The position numbers and the translations under genes were made by a program. The notes beneath the pieces were generated by a model. That model was not told where the DNA came from. It made no database searches and saw only the letters and a program-made list of their open reading frames with translations. A DNA stretch of 64,000 nucleotides from Edaphocola aurantiacus. Lineage in GTDB: Bacteria; Bacteroidota; Bacteroidia; Chitinophagales; Chitinophagaceae. This document shows, piece by piece, positions 46,963-55,584 of this stretch; positions within the stretch are counted from its first letter, which is position 1, and every line of letters begins with the position of its first letter. The stretch spans positions 456,089 through 520,088 of the forward strand of contig NZ_VOSI01000004.1 of NCBI RefSeq assembly GCF_019797745.1, written 5' to 3'.

Positions 46963-48408
46963 CTAATTGGATGCTTTAAAGATGTCCAGTTCATAGCCAA
47001 GCTGAATCTGATAAAAATTGTATTTATTATTTTCAAGTAGCCAGTTGCGTCTAAATCTCCAGAACATTTTGGAATCAGTATTAATTTTAAAAAAAACATT
47101 GAACCAGACAGTATTATAAGCATTAGCAAACATATCATTATACTCAAATCGTTTGTTAGATATATCAATCCACCTGCGATCATACCCAAACGATAAGCCA
47201 TATCTTGAGTCTGGTTTAATTTCACACATGATTCCGAATCCGTAAGAAGTTGTATTGACTCTAGAGATATTCTGACTTTGTAGTTGTGTTATCGTTCCTT
47301 GAATGATTTTTAAAGAATCAGCAACAGGAGTGGAGCCATAAGCAAAATTTCCATTAAGTTGAAAATTTAGTTTTCTATTTTGAAGATTAAGTTTAAACAG
47401 ATTTAGATCCATGCCAAAACTCCATTGCTGATACTGCAGTACTTTCAATGGATTTAATGTGAAGTGATTTGTACTGTCTACCAAACTCTTGTTCTTATCC
47501 AAATCAAATGAATCCAAATATAAATACCTATTGTTTTCTTCAATTTTGTTTAGAGATAATCGTGGTTCTATAAAAGCAAACATTCCACCATATATGCCAT
47601 TCTCGTTAACTATTTCACTTAATGGCTCAACTTTTCCGGTAAGTATATTTATTTTTTTTGACACTTCAATTTGTACTAATCCATTTGGTTCATTATCGCT
47701 CAAGCCTCTAAAGTCTGTGTATGCTCTCGCTGTTAGTATTCGAGAACGCTTTTCTTTTTTTAGCTCTACAATGGAGTTAGGCTCACTTAATTCTACTTTG
47801 CAATTAGTGGGGCTATAGTCTTCATTGTCGGTTTCTGAAACAACTTTATAATCAAGTATATTACTCAGCATAAAGTAAGCGTTGTGGGATTTGCTGTTTA
47901 TAAAGTCACTCTCTACAAATGAAGAATCAGGAATATTTTGTGTAGCTTTTTTATAAAGTGTATTTATTAATTCTCTTGTATTTCCAGAGTATATCCTCAT
48001 AAGGCTAAATCGGTCTGGGTCAAACTTTCCGGTAATGCTTATAGGTTTATTATTGCGAAACCTGATTGTATTAGTGCCATATACTTGCGTGTATTCATTT
48101 ACAACAGGTAAAAGGTCTGCAAAGATGTTTTTTATACCTCCATCTTCAAACTCAACAGTGACATTTTTGATCTCAAATTTTACTGGAATAAATAAAGCGG
48201 CATTGGCTGTTTCCTTGACACATTTACATCTTTTTTTAGAACAACAATTTGATTTAATACCGTTACTTTTTTGACCAGAGGTTATGCTTTGGTTTGTTTT
48301 CCTATAGGGGACCTCGATATTTATATCGATGAATTTTCTCTTTAGAGTTATATATGCAGTGACGGGTTCATCGTCCTGAAATTCTGCTCTCGCTTTGATC
48401 TCATACAT
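46963..48408 (-). CDS. C-terminal part of a frameshifted exported protein
   Basis: A 481-residue open frame of unknown family. The N-terminal half contains a Cys-rich patch (NCCSKKRCKCVKE, about 53-66); the last ~150 residues alternate polar and hydrophobic residues with aromatic ends (YGLSFGYDRRWIDISNKRF; ending YELDIFKASN), suggesting an outer-membrane barrel. The frame is open for 82 more codons upstream without any start codon, and those codons read as ordinary protein. The ATG at 48408 is therefore not the true start, and this ORF is the 3' part of a gene that begins at 49028 (next entry). Markedly AT-rich compared with flanking core genes. Confidence 0.55.
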   Translation of the reverse strand: MYEIKARAEFQDDEPVTAYITLKRKFIDINIEVPYRKTNQSITSGQKSNGIKSNCCSKKRCKCVKETANAALFIPVKFEIKNVTVEFEDGGIKNIFADLLPVVNEYTQVYGTNTIRFRNNKPISITGKFDPDRFSLMRIYSGNTRELINTLYKKATQNIPDSSFVESDFINSKSHNAYFMLSNILDYKVVSETDNEDYSPTNCKVELSEPNSIVELKKEKRSRILTARAYTDFRGLSDNEPNGLVQIEVSKKINILTGKVEPLSEIVNENGIYGGMFAFIEPRLSLNKIEENNRYLYLDSFDLDKNKSLVDSTNHFTLNPLKVLQYQQWSFGMDLNLFKLNLQNRKLNFQLNGNFAYGSTPVADSLKIIQGTITQLQSQNISRVNTTSYGFGIMCEIKPDSRYGLSFGYDRRWIDISNKRFEYNDMFANAYNTVWFNVFFKINTDSKMFWRFRRNWLLENNKYNFYQIQLGYELDIFKASN

Positions 48409-49028
48409 AATTTCTAAAGCCTTATGATCTACATCGGTACTTAATTTTTCAAATGGTGTATTATTTTTTAAATATAAGTCCGCTAGTTCATTCCGGAAAA
48501 TTTCTTTAAATTCTTCTTCTTTAAATTCAGGAAATGGTATTTCTTTACTTGCCTGGGGTTCTGAAACATTTTGTAGGAAGGCTTTATATATTGATAGTAA
48601 TTCCGTTACACTGTACCTATCTGTTTTTGATGCACCTTCAAATATATCCTTGCCATGTTATTCTGCTATTTTGAATGTTTTTAAGTCCCGCAATGTAATT
48701 TGGAAGCAGAGCAATAGTATCTATAATTTCATCTCCTGCATTTTTTAAAAAATCAGATGTCTCTTTTGCCTTTTTACTAGAATCAACGGTTGTCACTGCA
48801 TTTAAAAAGAATTCTGTTCGTAGAAATTTTCCGTGTCAATATCTGCAATAGGATTAGGCTGTGTTAGGGTTGATAATTTTAAGGTATGTATATTGCCATC
48901 CCTTTTGTATTGGTATTGAAAGACCTGGCGTTTAAATACAAAGCTACCATAAAGTGTTTTTTGGGAGTTTGAGTAAAAGCAGAAAATGCGATTAGAGAAA
49001 TCGAGACAAAGAAGATTAGTTTCTTCAT
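48409..49028 (-). pseudogene. N-terminal part of the same gene, broken by three frame changes
   Basis: The true start appears to be the ATG at 49028, giving a clean signal peptide (MKKLIFFVSISLIAFSAFTQ). Three frame changes follow. One is near 48903-48906, where one more base in a T4 run (A4 on the coding strand) would keep the frame. One is near 48804-48808, where one more base in an A5 run would do so. One is near 48655-48662. Reading through all three gives one protein of about 690 residues joining smoothly to the 481-residue ORF. This is either a decayed gene or two homopolymer sequencing errors plus one more. Confidence 0.7.
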
Positions 49029-49193
49029 AAAAAGTGATTTTGAAGGTTAAATAGTACTCATTGCAAAACACTCCTTCTGATTCAATCCATAATTATTCTG
49101 TTTTTTATGGATAATATTGTACAATAAAAATACTTCTTCAACCCTACCTCTGTCAAGGGTATTTCTCCCGTTCTTAAAGGGGGAAATATACAT

Positions 49194-49256: not shown

Positions 49257-49955
49257 TTATTTATAATACACAATCTGCCGCTCCGTGATCATTGTCTTGC
49301 CGTTTACATGGTCCAGTCTCAGTGTCCAGTTATGATTGCTGTCTGATTGCATGTAGTGATAAGTCGTCTGTATAATACTGTCCTTATTATTTAATACTTT
49401 GAATGTATCGGAGGCGGCGACCAGGTTTTCCTGGGCATCATATTTCATGCCGCGTAAGTACGTCGATCGGTCATTGTTATCCACAACGCGGGTATGCGTC
49501 AAATGGCCCATTGCATTAACCTGGTTGTACAGTTTTTTCTGCAGGTTATTATTGATATAACAGTGTGCTTCCTGCGCATAAAAATCCAGCAAATAGCTGA
49601 ATATAACCCATTGCTCCTCCTGCCCGGTGGCCATATCCGTATTCGTTGTATTGCCAATGCGCCCATTGATGTAAGAGGGTACAGACTTCGCCAGCAGTTT
49701 GCCGGAGGCATCATAGATGTTATACTGTAACTCATCACCTTGCTCCGAAAAAACAAATTGATGTTTGTGGCCCTCCGCTTGCTCCGATAATTTGCGGCCT
49801 TTGGCATCTGCCGGATAGGAAGTGAGGCGCAATTCTTTGACCTTCCCATGCAGGTTATGAGAAGTCCAGCCGTTGTACTTAATTTTGGTTTCATTTTGCT
49901 GTGTAAAACTGAATAGTGCACACAATGCCAGTAGGTATAATATTCCTTTCTTCAT
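49257..49955 (-). CDS. Exported hypothetical protein
   Basis: A 232-residue protein with a signal peptide (ILYLLALCALFSFTQQ). The mature part begins with KYNGWTSHNLHGKVKELRLTSYPA. Its spaced G/Y/D residues (EQGDELQYNIYDASGKLLAKS; GMKYDAQENLVAASD) resemble the short YD-type beta hairpins of Rhs-like or YwqK-like proteins. I recognise no defined family. It lies 4 nt after the DUF4287-like gene and may share its transcript. Confidence 0.75.
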   Translation of the reverse strand: MKKGILYLLALCALFSFTQQNETKIKYNGWTSHNLHGKVKELRLTSYPADAKGRKLSEQAEGHKHQFVFSEQGDELQYNIYDASGKLLAKSVPSYINGRIGNTTNTDMATGQEEQWVIFSYLLDFYAQEAHCYINNNLQKKLYNQVNAMGHLTHTRVVDNNDRSTYLRGMKYDAQENLVAASDTFKVLNNKDSIIQTTYHYMQSDSNHNWTLRLDHVNGKTMITERQIVYYK

Positions 49956-49959
49956 GCGA

Positions 49960-50175
49960 TTATTTTGGGTTTTCTTCCTGTTTCAGATACAAGGTCGTTA
50001 AAGTTCTGGCCCAGTAGCGGGGCACATTATATTCCTGTTGCAGATGCGCTACCACATCATTCGACTTTTTGTCCTTTGCCTGAAAGGCATCCAGTATCCC
50101 GATCCATGTTGCGATCTCCTTTCCCGTTTTCTCGATCACCTGCTCATTGCTCACATTCCAGTAGTCCTGTTTCAT
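49960..50175 (-). CDS. DUF4287-like small protein
   Basis: A 71-residue helical protein. The pattern NEQVIEKTGKEIATWIGILD, then VVAHLQQEYNVPRYWARTLT, matches DUF4287-type domains, in which a TGK motif and a late W-A-R/Q-T motif recur. Function unknown. The ORF is open back to 50289, but that longer reading crosses a strong terminator hairpin, so the ATG at 50175 is chosen. Confidence 0.8.
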   Translation of the reverse strand: MKQDYWNVSNEQVIEKTGKEIATWIGILDAFQAKDKKSNDVVAHLQQEYNVPRYWARTLTTLYLKQEENPK

Positions 50176-50239
50176 ACTTAATGATTTATACTGATGCATA
50201 TTAATACATTTTTTGAATTGTACCGACACAAATGCGCAT

Positions 50240-50323
50240 AAAAAAATCATCATCTCCGGAATGCCCGGAGATGATGACCCTCTCTTCATTGAATACAGCT
50301 CATCTGTACACTTGCAATTTAAT
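50240..50323 (-). ncRNA. Candidate small RNA or leader attenuator
   Basis: On the minus strand a perfect -7 box TACCTTTG (50330-50337) is followed about 50 nt later by a strong intrinsic terminator: 13-bp stem TCATCATCTCCGG/CCGGAGATGATGA (50247-50259, 50265-50277), 5-nt loop, then seven U. The product would be about 84 nt with no convincing ORF. It could be a free small RNA, or an attenuator for the DUF4287-like gene 64 nt further on. Inferred from layout only. Confidence 0.45.
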
Positions 50324-50368: not shown

Positions 50369-50653
50369 TCACCCCTTTATAAAGGGTGTGCCGGAGTGGG
50401 GAGGAGGTAGTAATAACAATTCGGTACTGCTCCGACAGATTTTCCTTCTGACTGCATCATAACTCACTCTGACTACATAATAATTCGTTCTGATGGTATC
50501 ATAATCTGTTCTGTTCATAAAATATTTTCTTCTGTCAGCATCATAATGCATACTGCTGGTAACATAATTCGTTCTGTCTGTGTCATAATCCACTCTGGCT
50601 GTCAAATAATCCATGCTGTAATCATATTTATTCATACTGCTGGCAGGTAACAT
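50369..50653 (-). CDS. Possible tyrosine-heptad repeat small protein
   Basis: A 94-residue open frame that runs through the 21-bp repeat array. In this frame each repeat unit becomes a heptad, about nine in a row, nearly all ending in Tyr, for example LTARVDY, DTDRTNY, DADRRKY, DTIRTNY (consensus D-T/A-x-R-x-x-Y). After the repeats there is a short tail (LLLLPPPHSGTPFIKG). No signal peptide or known family. The frame could be open by chance because the unit length is a multiple of three. No clear promoter or ribosome-binding site. Confidence 0.3.
   Translation of the reverse strand: MLPASSMNKYDYSMDYLTARVDYDTDRTNYVTSSMHYDADRRKYFMNRTDYDTIRTNYYVVRVSYDAVRRKICRSSTELLLLPPPHSGTPFIKG
50457..50603. 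repeat. 21-bp tandem repeat array
   Basis: Seven consecutive units of exactly 21 nt, degenerate outside a fixed core: positions 11-15 are almost always YTCTG, and most units begin TCATAAT. Less regular units extend the array to about 50410-50645. Example units are TCATAATCTGTTCTG at 50499 and TCATAATCCACTCTG at 50583. Two helical turns per unit would put every core on the same face of DNA. The 664-nt gap 50176-50839 holds this array, the candidate RNA above and the promoter below. Confidence 0.85.
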
Positions 50654-50759
50654 AACTATGCACAGGCAATAATTTAGTTGGTTGATGAAAATAAATCAAG
50701 AAGAAAATGCTGATAGTCAATATGCTGTAAGAAAATAATGAAATCGTTTACAGTACTGC

Positions 50760-50839: not shown

Positions 50840-51397
50840 ATGAATCAGAAAGAAGTCAATTTTCTGTCGATGTGCCGTTCGGTACAGCAGGTGCTGGACA
50901 CTTACAAGACAACCTGGTGGGCTGTCCCGGTTTTTGTCCAGAATGTCGAAATGTTTACACAGCTGGTCAGCGAGCTGTCTACAGCTGCTAAAGGAGCAGA
51001 GCTACGCTCAACAGGTGTTACGGAGCATAAACTGGACACCGAAGTCCGGGCTGTGCAACTGGCGGTGAATCTGGCGAAAAGGGCCAGCGTTTATGCACTG
51101 GATACCAATAATCCGGCATTGCATGATCAGTTAAGGATCTCCCGGACAGCTTTAATCCAGCGACCCGATAACCTTACCCTGTCTAAACTACGGGATGTTT
51201 ACACCCGCCTTCAGGCACTGGCCGCACAATTGCAGCCTTACTTTATTACAGAAACCGATCTGAACAATCTGAACGAACTGAACAATGCGTTTGAGCAACA
51301 GATCAGCCGACCGCGTACCACGATTGTGGAGCGCAAGACGTACAATCAGGAGCATATACCAGAGCAGATTGCGCAGTCTGCGCCTCTGCCTGTATAA
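50840..51397 (+). CDS. Helical hypothetical protein, C-terminus lost by frameshift
   Basis: A 185-residue, mostly helical cytosolic protein (VQQVLDTYKTTWWAVPVFVQ near the N-terminus, then long amphipathic helices). It resembles a Bacteroidota family of unknown function whose members end with a helix of the type KLDKLMxLFxxSxPxFYxxYxxAR. Here that ending is found in another frame just past the stop (see next entry). The residues QIAQSAPLPV before the stop look like out-of-frame reading. The family itself has no known role. Confidence 0.65.
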   Translation: MNQKEVNFLSMCRSVQQVLDTYKTTWWAVPVFVQNVEMFTQLVSELSTAAKGAELRSTGVTEHKLDTEVRAVQLAVNLAKRASVYALDTNNPALHDQLRISRTALIQRPDNLTLSKLRDVYTRLQALAAQLQPYFITETDLNNLNELNNAFEQQISRPRTTIVERKTYNQEHIPEQIAQSAPLPV

Positions 51398-51521
51398 GAT
51401 CGACAGCCTTATGAACCTGTTTTCCGATACTGCCCTGGAGCGGGAATACAGGTCTGCACGCATGATCCAGAACCTGGGCAGCCGCTTTGAGCAAAACCCG
51501 GAGGAGGGTATGGAGGAATAG
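51385..51521 (+). pseudogene. Displaced C-terminal segment of the preceding gene
   Basis: In another reading frame, the segment LYKIDSLMNLFSDTALERE then YRSARMIQNLGSRFEQ continues the preceding protein in the way family members normally end. A single-base indel near 51376-51390 would join them into a protein of about 226 residues. There is no separate start or ribosome-binding site. Confidence 0.6.
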
Positions 51522-51524
51522 TTG

Positions 51525-51560
51525 AATAGATAAAGGAGCCGGGAGACTCCTTTATCTATT
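51525..51560. terminator. Terminator between the frameshifted gene and kwaB
   Basis: A 14-bp perfect stem (AATAGATAAAGGAG/CTCCTTTATCTATT) with an 8-nt loop. It follows the displaced C-terminal segment by 3 nt and faces the kwaB stop. Confidence 0.75.
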
Positions 51561-51626
51561 GTTGAATTATATTTGTGACTCGCACTAAGCATAGGAGCTA
51601 GTGGGGTAGTGATATCTAACTTTACA

Positions 51627-52604
51627 TTATTCCCCACCATTTTCTATTTGTGTATTGTCTTCAACAGATATATCATCTTTCGCCAAACTATCATAGTATA
51701 ACTTTGTTAGTTCAGATGTTAGTAGGTCGTCATTCAAAATTTTGATTAACAAATCTTTAGATACTCGAGTGTCTAAAAGAAACTGTGTTCCTTCTTCATT
51801 ATATCTCATCCTATTTCTAGTAAAAGGATGAGTCTTTGCAAATTCAATAATGTTTGCATTTGGTATATTATTTTTGATCACAGGTGAGTTCCTAGCTACT
51901 TTTGTTAGTTTCCTAGCGAAGCTTATGTTGTTTACAAGTTCCTCAAGTGCTGTAATGTTATTAATTAGCTGCATTTCACTAATCACACTTAAGCTAATGG
52001 CTGCCTCTCTTGTGATAATATCATAAAAGCCAAAACTTCTCTCAATAGCGTTTAAGTCAATTATAATAATTTCACCCGCAACCCTCATTAATTGGAATTT
52101 GGGTGTAATTCTTAATAGCTGATCTTCAAATCTTTCAAGTCGTTGATTATGTTTCATAAAAAGGTAACCACCTCTTCCAATAACTTCAACTGAAGAGAGT
52201 TTTTTATACAGCGTTACCTCGTTAGAATCATCAGCAATAACAACAATAAGAGAATTGATATCTGATAATTGATGAGAATTAAAATTAAAGGTTTGCAAAT
52301 TATCATTTCCAATAACTTCCTGTAACATTTGTAATTCTTGTGGCACTTCTAAATCATATTGATAAAAGCATCTTCCCCTTTCGTCAGCAGTTGACAGTTG
52401 TAATACAGCATAATCATCCTTTGAAATGACAAAATTTTGTATTGCATCAAGGAATATGTTTTTTAATATCGGTAAATCATCGCCTTTAATATCTAGCTTT
52501 TGAGGTTCTTCAATATTATTAATGTTAGCATAAAATATGATTTGCAGTTCTCCTTCAGGGTTATTTACAAATTCGAGGGCGATATCTAATTCTTGTTTAT
52601 TCAT
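51627..52604 (-). CDS. kwaB: Kiwa anti-phage protein KwaB (DUF4868)
   Basis: A 325-residue cytosolic protein of the DUF4868/KwaB family. Landmarks are LYKKLSSVEVIGRGGYLFMK, the block RFEDQLLRITPKFQLM then IIIIDLNAIERSFGFYD (about 150-195), and the C-terminal LIKILNDDLLTSELTKLYY. In Kiwa, KwaB works with the membrane protein KwaA; published work assigns KwaB a DNA-binding role that blocks phage replication. The kwaA stop overlaps its start by 8 nt, so they are translationally coupled. The pair is strongly AT-rich relative to the flanking core genes, suggesting recent transfer. Confidence 0.92.
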   Translation of the reverse strand: MNKQELDIALEFVNNPEGELQIIFYANINNIEEPQKLDIKGDDLPILKNIFLDAIQNFVISKDDYAVLQLSTADERGRCFYQYDLEVPQELQMLQEVIGNDNLQTFNFNSHQLSDINSLIVVIADDSNEVTLYKKLSSVEVIGRGGYLFMKHNQRLERFEDQLLRITPKFQLMRVAGEIIIIDLNAIERSFGFYDIITREAAISLSVISEMQLINNITALEELVNNISFARKLTKVARNSPVIKNNIPNANIIEFAKTHPFTRNRMRYNEEGTQFLLDTRVSKDLLIKILNDDLLTSELTKLYYDSLAKDDISVEDNTQIENGGE

Positions 52605-53181
52605 TTTGCTTTACTTTATATGCGTAATAAATTCGCTCATCGAGTTTAAAGTATTTTACTCGATCGTTTTCTGTTAATTTATTTCTACTAATTATTATTT
52701 TATTTTGTCTATTTTCTCCATTTCTAAATTCCCCATCTACTTTATAAATCTTGAATTGAAGTATTGCTAATGTGGGATTTGCATAAAATATATCTGTTCT
52801 GATATATATTGAGCCGATAGCGAGAAGAAGGATAAAGAAAACAATTACATACCTTATGTTTTCGAATTGAAAACAAACAAGTGGAATAATATATGTAGTT
52901 AAAAAAGTTAAGTGTTCATAATCTATATTTTCAATTGCAATTATTTTAAAAGAAAGTTCTGGGGTTCCTTTCATTTTAAAAGCAAAATCAGAATAAGAAA
53001 TACATCCAATTATTAAGGCAAGCAAGCAAATTGCAGGGATAGTATTTGTTTTTAATAGAGTTGAAAATCCAACAAATGAACAGTCTTTTGAAAAGCAAAT
53101 TGGTATTTTAGCTGTTATTATTATAATTAAAACAAATAACAACCATAATGATAAAAAGAAGAGCCCAATTTTTCTAATCAT
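52597..53181 (-). CDS. kwaA: Kiwa anti-phage membrane protein KwaA
   Basis: A 194-residue protein with four membrane segments (from IGLFFLSLWLLFVLIII; IPAICLLALIIGC; LTFLTTYIIPLVCF; YVIVFFILLLAIGSIYI) and a soluble C-terminal tail. The core ENIDYEHLTFLTTYIIPL and YANPTLAILQFKIYKVDGEF match KwaA as I know it. KwaA senses phage at the membrane and passes the signal to KwaB. The frame is open to 53268, but the ATG at 53181 puts the first membrane helix near the N-terminus as in the family. It precedes and overlaps kwaB. Confidence 0.88.
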   Translation of the reverse strand: MIRKIGLFFLSLWLLFVLIIIITAKIPICFSKDCSFVGFSTLLKTNTIPAICLLALIIGCISYSDFAFKMKGTPELSFKIIAIENIDYEHLTFLTTYIIPLVCFQFENIRYVIVFFILLLAIGSIYIRTDIFYANPTLAILQFKIYKVDGEFRNGENRQNKIIISRNKLTENDRVKYFKLDERIYYAYKVKQNE

Positions 53182-53390
53182 AGAATATAGATAATTTTTT
53201 GGATCATTATTGTTACTTGTTATGTAAAGTAAAATTAACTTCCGGTAATTGGTTATCAATGATATCATTCACCCTTTTACCTTCCGTCTTTTTCCCCTTG
53301 ACTTTCTCCAGAATAAAACAGGTCCCTAAAGTGTGAGTAAATGTAATTGCCTATACATAAGGGATTCACTTTTTCGTTATCCTACAAAAA

Positions 53391-53476
53391 CAATACAAAA
53401 GTTAGCTTGCATTAAGGACAAATAGCAATAGATGGGCTTTACCTTTACTGCCTTACTAATGCCAAACTTCAAGCCT
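53391..53476 (+). repeat. Leader copy 1 of the duplicated gene pair
   Basis: This segment, from ACAATACAAAAGTTAG to the ATG, aligns with 54221-54309 before the second paralog: TACAAAAGTTAG, then GATGG, TTTACTGC, CAAAC and CCTATGAAAA recur in order at matching distances. The duplication therefore included the leader. The rest of the gap 53182-53390 shows no other feature. Confidence 0.7.
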
Positions 53477-54163
53477 ATGAAAAGAAGAAAACAAGCCATC
53501 ATTGCCTTGTCGGCACTGCTCTTATGCGCAGAATGCTGCTCCTTTTATATGTTTAAAAAGCATCGGCCATCTACAGCGGTACTACAGCCGCAGGCGCAGC
53601 GGCAGATCACCTTCCCGGGTAATATACACCGAACTATCAACTTCCTGGACACCGCAGATTTCAGGAAACGGCCGCAGGCCTGTGTGTACAGCTGGGCTAA
53701 GGAAACTACTACACCGGCAGAGATGGAGCGGCTCTTAAACGGCTTCGGTATTAGGAATATCAATAATAAAGCGCATTTGCTGTGCACGATTCTCTATTGC
53801 AACAGGGATGAGGTTGCGTACAGTTTAAAAGCAGAAAATATATACGGTATATTGGTGATTACCAATGATGAGCAGGGGTATATGTACACGCAGCTGTTCC
53901 GGAGAAACGGCGCACACTTTGACCACCTTAGAGCATTCGATGCCAAAATCTGGAGACTGTATTGCAAGATGCAGGATGATATAGCGAAGGTCTTAAGCGG
54001 CAGGAAAACAGACCTGGGTTATTCCGTAAATATTGGATTTAAAGAATCGACATACAAAGAAGCCCGTAGAGGACTTGAAACAGATCTGTTGCAGGAGGCG
54101 ATCGATAAGGCCTTAGATACACTTGCTACCGTAACAGAAATGCCTTTGTCTCCGGACCAGTGA
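53477..54163 (+). CDS. Lipoprotein-like protein, paralog 1
   Basis: A 228-residue exported protein. The N-terminal hydrophobic segment (IIALSALLLCAECCSFYMF) holds cysteines that could serve as a lipobox. The body shares about half its residues by eye with the first ~220 residues of the next gene: ITFP, FLD, TTP-EM, LNxFGI, IYGxL, GYMYTQ, KIW-LY, GRKTxLGY, YK-AR. No known family recognised. It ends where the paralog begins its extra domain. The frame is open to 53432, but the ATG at 53477 corresponds to the start of the paralog. Confidence 0.75.
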   Translation: MKRRKQAIIALSALLLCAECCSFYMFKKHRPSTAVLQPQAQRQITFPGNIHRTINFLDTADFRKRPQACVYSWAKETTTPAEMERLLNGFGIRNINNKAHLLCTILYCNRDEVAYSLKAENIYGILVITNDEQGYMYTQLFRRNGAHFDHLRAFDAKIWRLYCKMQDDIAKVLSGRKTDLGYSVNIGFKESTYKEARRGLETDLLQEAIDKALDTLATVTEMPLSPDQ

Positions 54164-54216
54164 TGTCAAACCAAACCAAAGTATGGCATTGAAATGTTAA
54201 TGGGATAATACGGTGA

Positions 54217-54309
54217 AAAAACAGTACAAAAGTTAGTGCGACTCAAAGACAGGTTGAAAACAGATGGTTTTAGTTTTACTGCTTTAATCAAACCAAATAT
54301 TTCAGACCT
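54217..54309 (+). repeat. Leader copy 2 of the duplicated gene pair
   Basis: Aligned counterpart of 53391-53476 (AACAGTACAAAAGTTAG to the ATG at 54310), showing that the tandem duplication covered the 5' region as well as the gene. Confidence 0.7.
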
Positions 54310-55584
54310 ATGAAAAAAGCAAAACTAATCATCATCGCTTTGTCCGTACTGCTGCTATGTGCAGGAATGGTTACCTTTTATTCCTGTAGTAAAGAGGCCC
54401 AGCCCGGACAATGTGGATACGGGCCAACCGTACTAAAGTCGCATATACAGAAGCAGATTACTTTTCCGAACAAATTAAGTAAAACGGTCAGTTTTTTGGA
54501 TATGAATGAATATAGGAATCGCCCGGATGCATGTATATATGCCTGGGCTGAAGAAAGTACTACACCAAAAGAAATGGTACAGATATTAAATAGTTTTGGA
54601 ATTTCAGAAATACATAACCCGGATAATCTGTTAGGAATTATTACTTATTATAATAGCGATTCCACACCATACCGCTTAGATAATGATTTGATTTATGGCT
54701 TCCTTTTATTGACCACTGATGATAAAGGCTATATGTATACACAGGTATTCCAGAGAAAGGGTAACGACTTTGTGCATCTTCCTCAGTTTGACTCAAAAAT
54801 CTGGAAACTTTATATGGATCAGCGTAATGATTTGGCTCAAATCCTGAATGGAAGAAAAACAAACCTGGGATATGCCGTGAGGATTATTTATAGACAGAGC
54901 AGTTATAAACAAGCAAGAATAGGTACAAGGACTAACTCTTTTCAACACCAGATAAGCAATGAATTAAAAGGATTGTCTACATTGGAGTACAGTAATGCGA
55001 TTATGAGAAAGTTTACTGAGCCGGAACATGCAGGAAATAGAAAATGTACTATAGATGAGTGTAAAGTAACGGGAAATGGTCATTGTTCTGATGCCTTCCC
55101 GTCAGAAATCGCTTTTTGTGATGAGGATAAAACCATAGGGGAGACCTGTGGCGGAAAAGTGGCCTACCAGATTGCTGCTGCAACAAATAATAATGTGATG
55201 AATGCGACGGTTCACTTTCGGGATTATGTATTAAGTCAATCCAGCTATGGAATACACTTTACAGAAGACCTGGAATATGTAGGATACATTTTTACACAGC
55301 ACTTATCTGTTGCTGACGCAGTAGAAGTGGTGGGTGTTATGGAAAGTACTATTTATCCATTAGCGCGAAAGTTAATCAGTCCTGATGTACTGGATGATAA
55401 CAGTATATTTATTACTGCTCCTCAGGCTACTACATTGCAAAATATCATTACCCGCATTCGCGCAGTATCAGATGATCGATTGTATCAGGAGATCCTGGAT
55501 GAGATGAGTGCTAATGTTACTTATGTACAGGGAAAGACAACGGTACAGGTCTATACAGATCTGGTGCCTGGTCAAGGTTCATAA
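54310..55584 (+). CDS. Lipoprotein, paralog 2 with Cys-rich extension
   Basis: A 424-residue predicted lipoprotein (VTFYSCSKEA, lipobox-like Cys at about residue 26). Residues ~45-220 match paralog 1. The C-terminal ~190 residues are unique: a cysteine-rich stretch (CTIDECKVTGNGHC, then IAFCDED and GETCGGK; five cysteines within about 45 residues) followed by a helical region. The spacing suggests disulfide bonds, so a periplasmic or surface location fits. Function unknown. Possibly an envelope protein of the accessory block next to Kiwa; no link to defence is shown. Confidence 0.8.
   Translation: MKKAKLIIIALSVLLLCAGMVTFYSCSKEAQPGQCGYGPTVLKSHIQKQITFPNKLSKTVSFLDMNEYRNRPDACIYAWAEESTTPKEMVQILNSFGISEIHNPDNLLGIITYYNSDSTPYRLDNDLIYGFLLLTTDDKGYMYTQVFQRKGNDFVHLPQFDSKIWKLYMDQRNDLAQILNGRKTNLGYAVRIIYRQSSYKQARIGTRTNSFQHQISNELKGLSTLEYSNAIMRKFTEPEHAGNRKCTIDECKVTGNGHCSDAFPSEIAFCDEDKTIGETCGGKVAYQIAAATNNNVMNATVHFRDYVLSQSSYGIHFTEDLEYVGYIFTQHLSVADAVEVVGVMESTIYPLARKLISPDVLDDNSIFITAPQATTLQNIITRIRAVSDDRLYQEILDEMSANVTYVQGKTTVQVYTDLVPGQGS

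What the first reader, a model, noticed from the sequence alone, without database searches (positions are those of the whole stretch)
51627..53181. Kiwa anti-phage system (kwaA-kwaB) in a Bacteroidota island
A four-helix membrane protein with KwaA landmarks overlaps by 8 nt a DUF4868/KwaB protein, both AT-rich against a GC-richer background. Kiwa is a known two-gene defence. The copy is complete and sits in a block with degraded genes, repeats and duplicated genes, so the neighbours deserve testing as additional defence components.
Basis: partly seen in the sequence, partly recalled or inferred. Interest (0 to 1): 0.7.

Follow-up and report, generated by a model that had tools for sequence, protein, structure and literature searches.

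The report
Ordinary Kiwa anti-phage gene pair
This is a complete, intact copy of the known two-gene bacterial anti-phage system Kiwa (kwaA-kwaB), probably gained by this species through gene transfer into a variable stretch of its chromosome; it is ordinary, and none of the genes around it proved to be a further defence gene.

Summary
The finding is right in its core. Window 52597-53181 (-) encodes KwaA (194 aa) and 51627-52604 (-) encodes KwaB (325 aa), overlapping by 8 nt. Both pass the curated NCBIfam cut-offs (KwaA 234.7 bits against 100; KwaB 352.8 against 200), hit PADLOC Kiwa models at 8e-79 and 2e-115, and match the solved Kiwa proteins over nearly their whole length. The pair is intact and AT-rich (29% G+C against 43%), but Kiwa pairs in other hosts are 27-34% G+C too. 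KwaB is absent from all 60 relatives searched, four congeners included. The nearest congener (AspS 97% identical) has the same neighbouring genes without Kiwa. The closest KwaB relatives (66-72% identical) lie in distant Bacteroidota, which argues for horizontal transfer. The suggestion that the neighbours are extra defence components is not supported: they have no defence-model hit, and most are present in the Kiwa-less congener. The surroundings are a variable interval with one broken AT-rich gene, a tandem repeat and a duplicated small exported-protein gene, not a defence island. Likely mechanism: the one established for Kiwa (membrane-sensing KwaA lattice, DNA-binding KwaB). A new member of a known kind, of low interest.

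The parts
52597..53181 (-). kwaA, 194 aa, membrane subunit of Kiwa
   Evidence: NF041622 234.7 bits (cut-off 100); PADLOC KwaA 8.4e-79; PDB 9mrg/9mrx/9o0i KwaA 1e-40; fold match 9mrx_A E 5.5e-15; start by alignment with orthologues
51627..52604 (-). kwaB, 325 aa (DUF4868), DNA-binding effector subunit of Kiwa
   Evidence: NF041623 352.8 bits (cut-off 200); PADLOC KwaB 1.6e-115; PF16162 117.7 bits (cut-off 26.3); PDB KwaB 1e-33; fold search finds only KwaB entries at E <= 0.001
52597..52604 (-). ATGAATAA overlap of the two genes, implying one transcript and coupled translation (inferred)
   Evidence: sequence; the same 8-nt overlap in L017, L019 and L022, 4 nt in L018 and L020
51554..53283 (.). 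approximate extent of the segment that the nearest congener lacks
   Evidence: DNA similarity to G001 ends at 51553 and resumes at 53284-53323; approximate because the right flank was also rearranged

Best explanation
A complete Kiwa anti-phage system acquired by horizontal transfer. By homology, KwaA forms membrane-embedded tetramers that sense a phage-induced disturbance of the inner membrane; KwaB dimers bind to them, building a lattice, and bind the incoming phage DNA, stopping replication and late transcription without cutting it. Shown here: both genes, intact, in the usual order and overlap, full-length similarity to the solved proteins, absence from close relatives. Inferred: expression, complex formation, DNA binding and defence in this host.
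For: Family models; solved-structure sequence matches; fold matches; kwaA directly before kwaB in all nine close relatives examined, with full-length alignment of both proteins; absent from 60 relatives and from the corresponding locus of the nearest congener. Mechanism from PMC12904381, which reviews Zhang et al. 2025; a streptococcal Kiwa was shown to protect in PMC11514479. The host carries a RecC and a RecB-like protein, with which Kiwa was reported to interact.
Against: KwaB is only moderately similar to the characterised protein (24-25% identity in the fold alignment). The AF2 models are of low confidence (mean pLDDT 63 and 52). No promoter beyond chance level was found upstream of kwaA (that scan does not cover Bacteroidota promoters).
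Confidence: 0.95

Rival explanations
1. Kiwa is one module of a larger defence island here, with the neighbouring genes (46963-49071, 49257-50289, 50840-51521, 53432-55584) as further components.
For: The interval varies between congeners, and in relatives Kiwa does sit among defence genes: between HsdS and HsdR in L019, near a PDC-S32 gene in L022.
Against: No neighbour has a PADLOC hit except a weak generic match in the NUDIX gene, which the genus shares. Orthologues of 49257, 49960, 50840 and 54310 exist in the Kiwa-less congener G001. The paralogous pair 53432/54310 is known only from G000 and G001 among 41 relatives.
Confidence: 0.04
2. The pair is a decayed or silent relic of Kiwa.
For: The same variable interval holds a frame-broken gene (about 46963-49030), and no clear promoter was found.
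Against: Both frames are full-length and align without breaks to orthologues; the coding overlap is intact.
Confidence: 0.05

Closest known systems
Kiwa (KwaA-KwaB) of the solved structures, PDB 9mrx, 9mrg, 9mrr, 9mtn, 9nyu, 9o0i
   Same: Two genes, full-length homology of both proteins, helical membrane part of KwaA followed by a C-terminal beta domain
   Different: Sequence divergence (about 40% identity for KwaA, about 25% for KwaB); no gene added or lost
Kiwa of Flavobacterium frigoris DSM 15719 (L022), Vicingaceae MAG (L018), Hoylesella pleuritidis (L020)
   Same: 67-72% identical KwaB and overlapping kwaA
   Different: Different neighbours, in L022 one defence-candidate gene

Membership tests
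Kiwa | KwaB (DUF4868) above curated cut-off | tested here: met
   NF041623 352.8 against 200; PF16162 117.7 against 26.3
Kiwa | KwaA-type membrane partner adjoining kwaB | tested here: met
   NF041622 234.7 against 100; 8-nt overlap
Kiwa | Fold of KwaA as in the solved tetramer | tested here: met
   9mrx_A TM 0.68, E 5.5e-15, although mean pLDDT is only 63
Kiwa | Fold of KwaB as in the solved dimer | tested here: inconclusive
   Foldseek's only significant hits are KwaB entries, but the low-confidence model superposes poorly (TM 0.36); the sequence match is full-length
Kiwa | KwaA-KwaB lattice, DNA binding, phage restriction | not testable with these tools
   needs experiment

The most novel reading that the evidence does not exclude
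A flanking lineage-specific exported-protein gene pair (53432-55584), found only in this species and its nearest congener, has been co-opted to work with Kiwa at the cell envelope.
Probability: 0.02. Interest if true: 0.5.

Novelty: new member of a known kind. Interest (0 to 1): 0.12.

Why it matters
It adds one clean Bacteroidota Kiwa copy with a Kiwa-free congener for comparison; among 395 genomes of the phylum only 4, this one included, pass the KwaB cut-off, so the typical form is uncommon there. It changes nothing in the understanding of Kiwa.

Tried and rejected
Extra defence components: rejected by PADLOC, Pfam and NCBIfam scans and by presence in the Kiwa-less congener. Mobile carrier: no KwaB relative in 50,697 phage records or by scan of viral contigs; only two 35% relatives on Emticicia plasmids, no DNA-level plasmid match; no integrase, transposase or tRNA recognised next to the pair. 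Clean insertion junction: not defined, because the 54310 orthologue lies inverted relative to aspS in G001; the 40-bp boundary stretch at 53284-53323 is single-copy in each genome, hence no sign of an attachment repeat. Terminator and promoter scans gave nothing above chance. The primary Kiwa paper is not held, so residue-level tests of DNA binding or of the KwaA-KwaB interface were not made.

Full report
Observation. Two minus-strand genes lie at the stated place. kwaB, 51627-52604, encodes 325 aa; kwaA, 52597-53181, encodes 194 aa. The genes share the 8 bases ATGAATAA. The same overlap is seen in three of the nearest relatives and a 4-base overlap in two more. The pair is 29.3% G+C against 43.4% for the rest of the window.

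Identity. KwaB: PADLOC 1.6e-115, Pfam PF16162 117.7 bits against a cut-off of 26.3, NCBIfam NF041623 352.8 against 200. KwaA: PADLOC 8.4e-79, NF041622 234.7 against 100. Both match the solved Kiwa proteins nearly from end to end. An AF2 model of KwaA (mean pLDDT 63) has four long helices followed by a beta domain, and all its significant structural matches are KwaA, best 9mrx_A with TM 0.68. A poor KwaB model (mean pLDDT 52) still finds only KwaB entries at a significant level, but it superposes badly, so for KwaB the sequence evidence is the stronger.

Distribution. Of 61 genomes of the genus, family and order, only this one has a KwaB, and of 21 only this one a KwaA. In 395 genomes of the phylum 13 have any KwaB match and 4 pass the cut-off. 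The closest copies, 66-72% identical in KwaB, come from Flavobacterium, Vicingaceae, Hoylesella, Paludibacteraceae and a contig binned as Methanosarcina (the last possibly a binning error). High similarity to distant hosts together with absence from near ones argues for horizontal transfer. Low G+C by itself is weak evidence, since Kiwa pairs are 27-34% G+C in other hosts as well.

Sister locus. G001, whose AspS is 97% identical, keeps nrdB, the NUDIX gene, 49257, 49960, the 21-bp repeat region, 50840 and an orthologue of 54310, and has no Kiwa. Similarity ends at 51553 and resumes at 53284, which brackets the two genes closely. The right flank is rearranged (the 54310 orthologue is inverted), so the ends are approximate, and gain here cannot be told from loss there by this pair alone; absence in G002-G004 and in the family favours gain. 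In place of the AT-rich broken gene (about 46963-49030), G001 carries a rhomboid-like protein (by eye) and several small exported proteins; G002 has yet other content. The interval between nrdB and aspS is thus a variable spot.

Neighbours. None of the neighbours hits a defence model, apart from a weak, generic match in the NUDIX gene, which is shared across the genus. Genes that a Kiwa-less congener keeps are unlikely to be dedicated Kiwa parts. In relatives, by contrast, Kiwa does lie among defence genes: in L019 between type I specificity and restriction genes, in L022 near a PDC-S32 gene.

Mechanism. According to the review PMC12904381, KwaA tetramers in the inner membrane bind KwaB dimers in a fence-like lattice, sense infection at the membrane and bring KwaB to the entering DNA, which KwaB binds without cutting, stopping replication and late transcription. 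PMC11514479 reports activity of a streptococcal Kiwa and cites a link to RecBCD. This host has a RecC and a RecB-like protein (the RecB match is just below its curated cut-off). Applying the mechanism here is inference from homology.

Verdict.

Noticed in passing
50447-50660: Degenerate 21-bp tandem array (about ten units, TCTGnnnGnnTCATAATnCnT) between divergent genes; the congener G001 has an array at the same place with a 105-bp higher period (L023 4636-4881), and a second array lies elsewhere in the genome (G000:C3 about 51573-51729, L057). Role unknown; it leaves an open minus-strand frame rich in tyrosine-aspartate-arginine repeats, probably not a gene.
   Followed up: partly
46963-49030: AT-rich (33% G+C) gene, by eye with a signal peptide, broken by about three frame changes; absent from congeners, one distant relative (31%) in G007 of the family.
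   Followed up: partly
53432-54163 and 54310-55584: Tandem paralogues with signal sequences (49% identical over 225 aa), the first lacking the C-terminal half; found only here and, as one copy in inverted orientation, in the nearest congener.
   Followed up: partly
53284-53323: Forty bases 90% identical to the start of a small open frame of about 49 codons in G001 (L023 2007-2046); single copy in each genome; seems a relic at the edge of the Kiwa segment.
   Followed up: partly
L019 464-8001: In a Paludibacteraceae MAG the Kiwa pair sits between the specificity and restriction genes of a type I restriction system, as a passenger.
   Followed up: no
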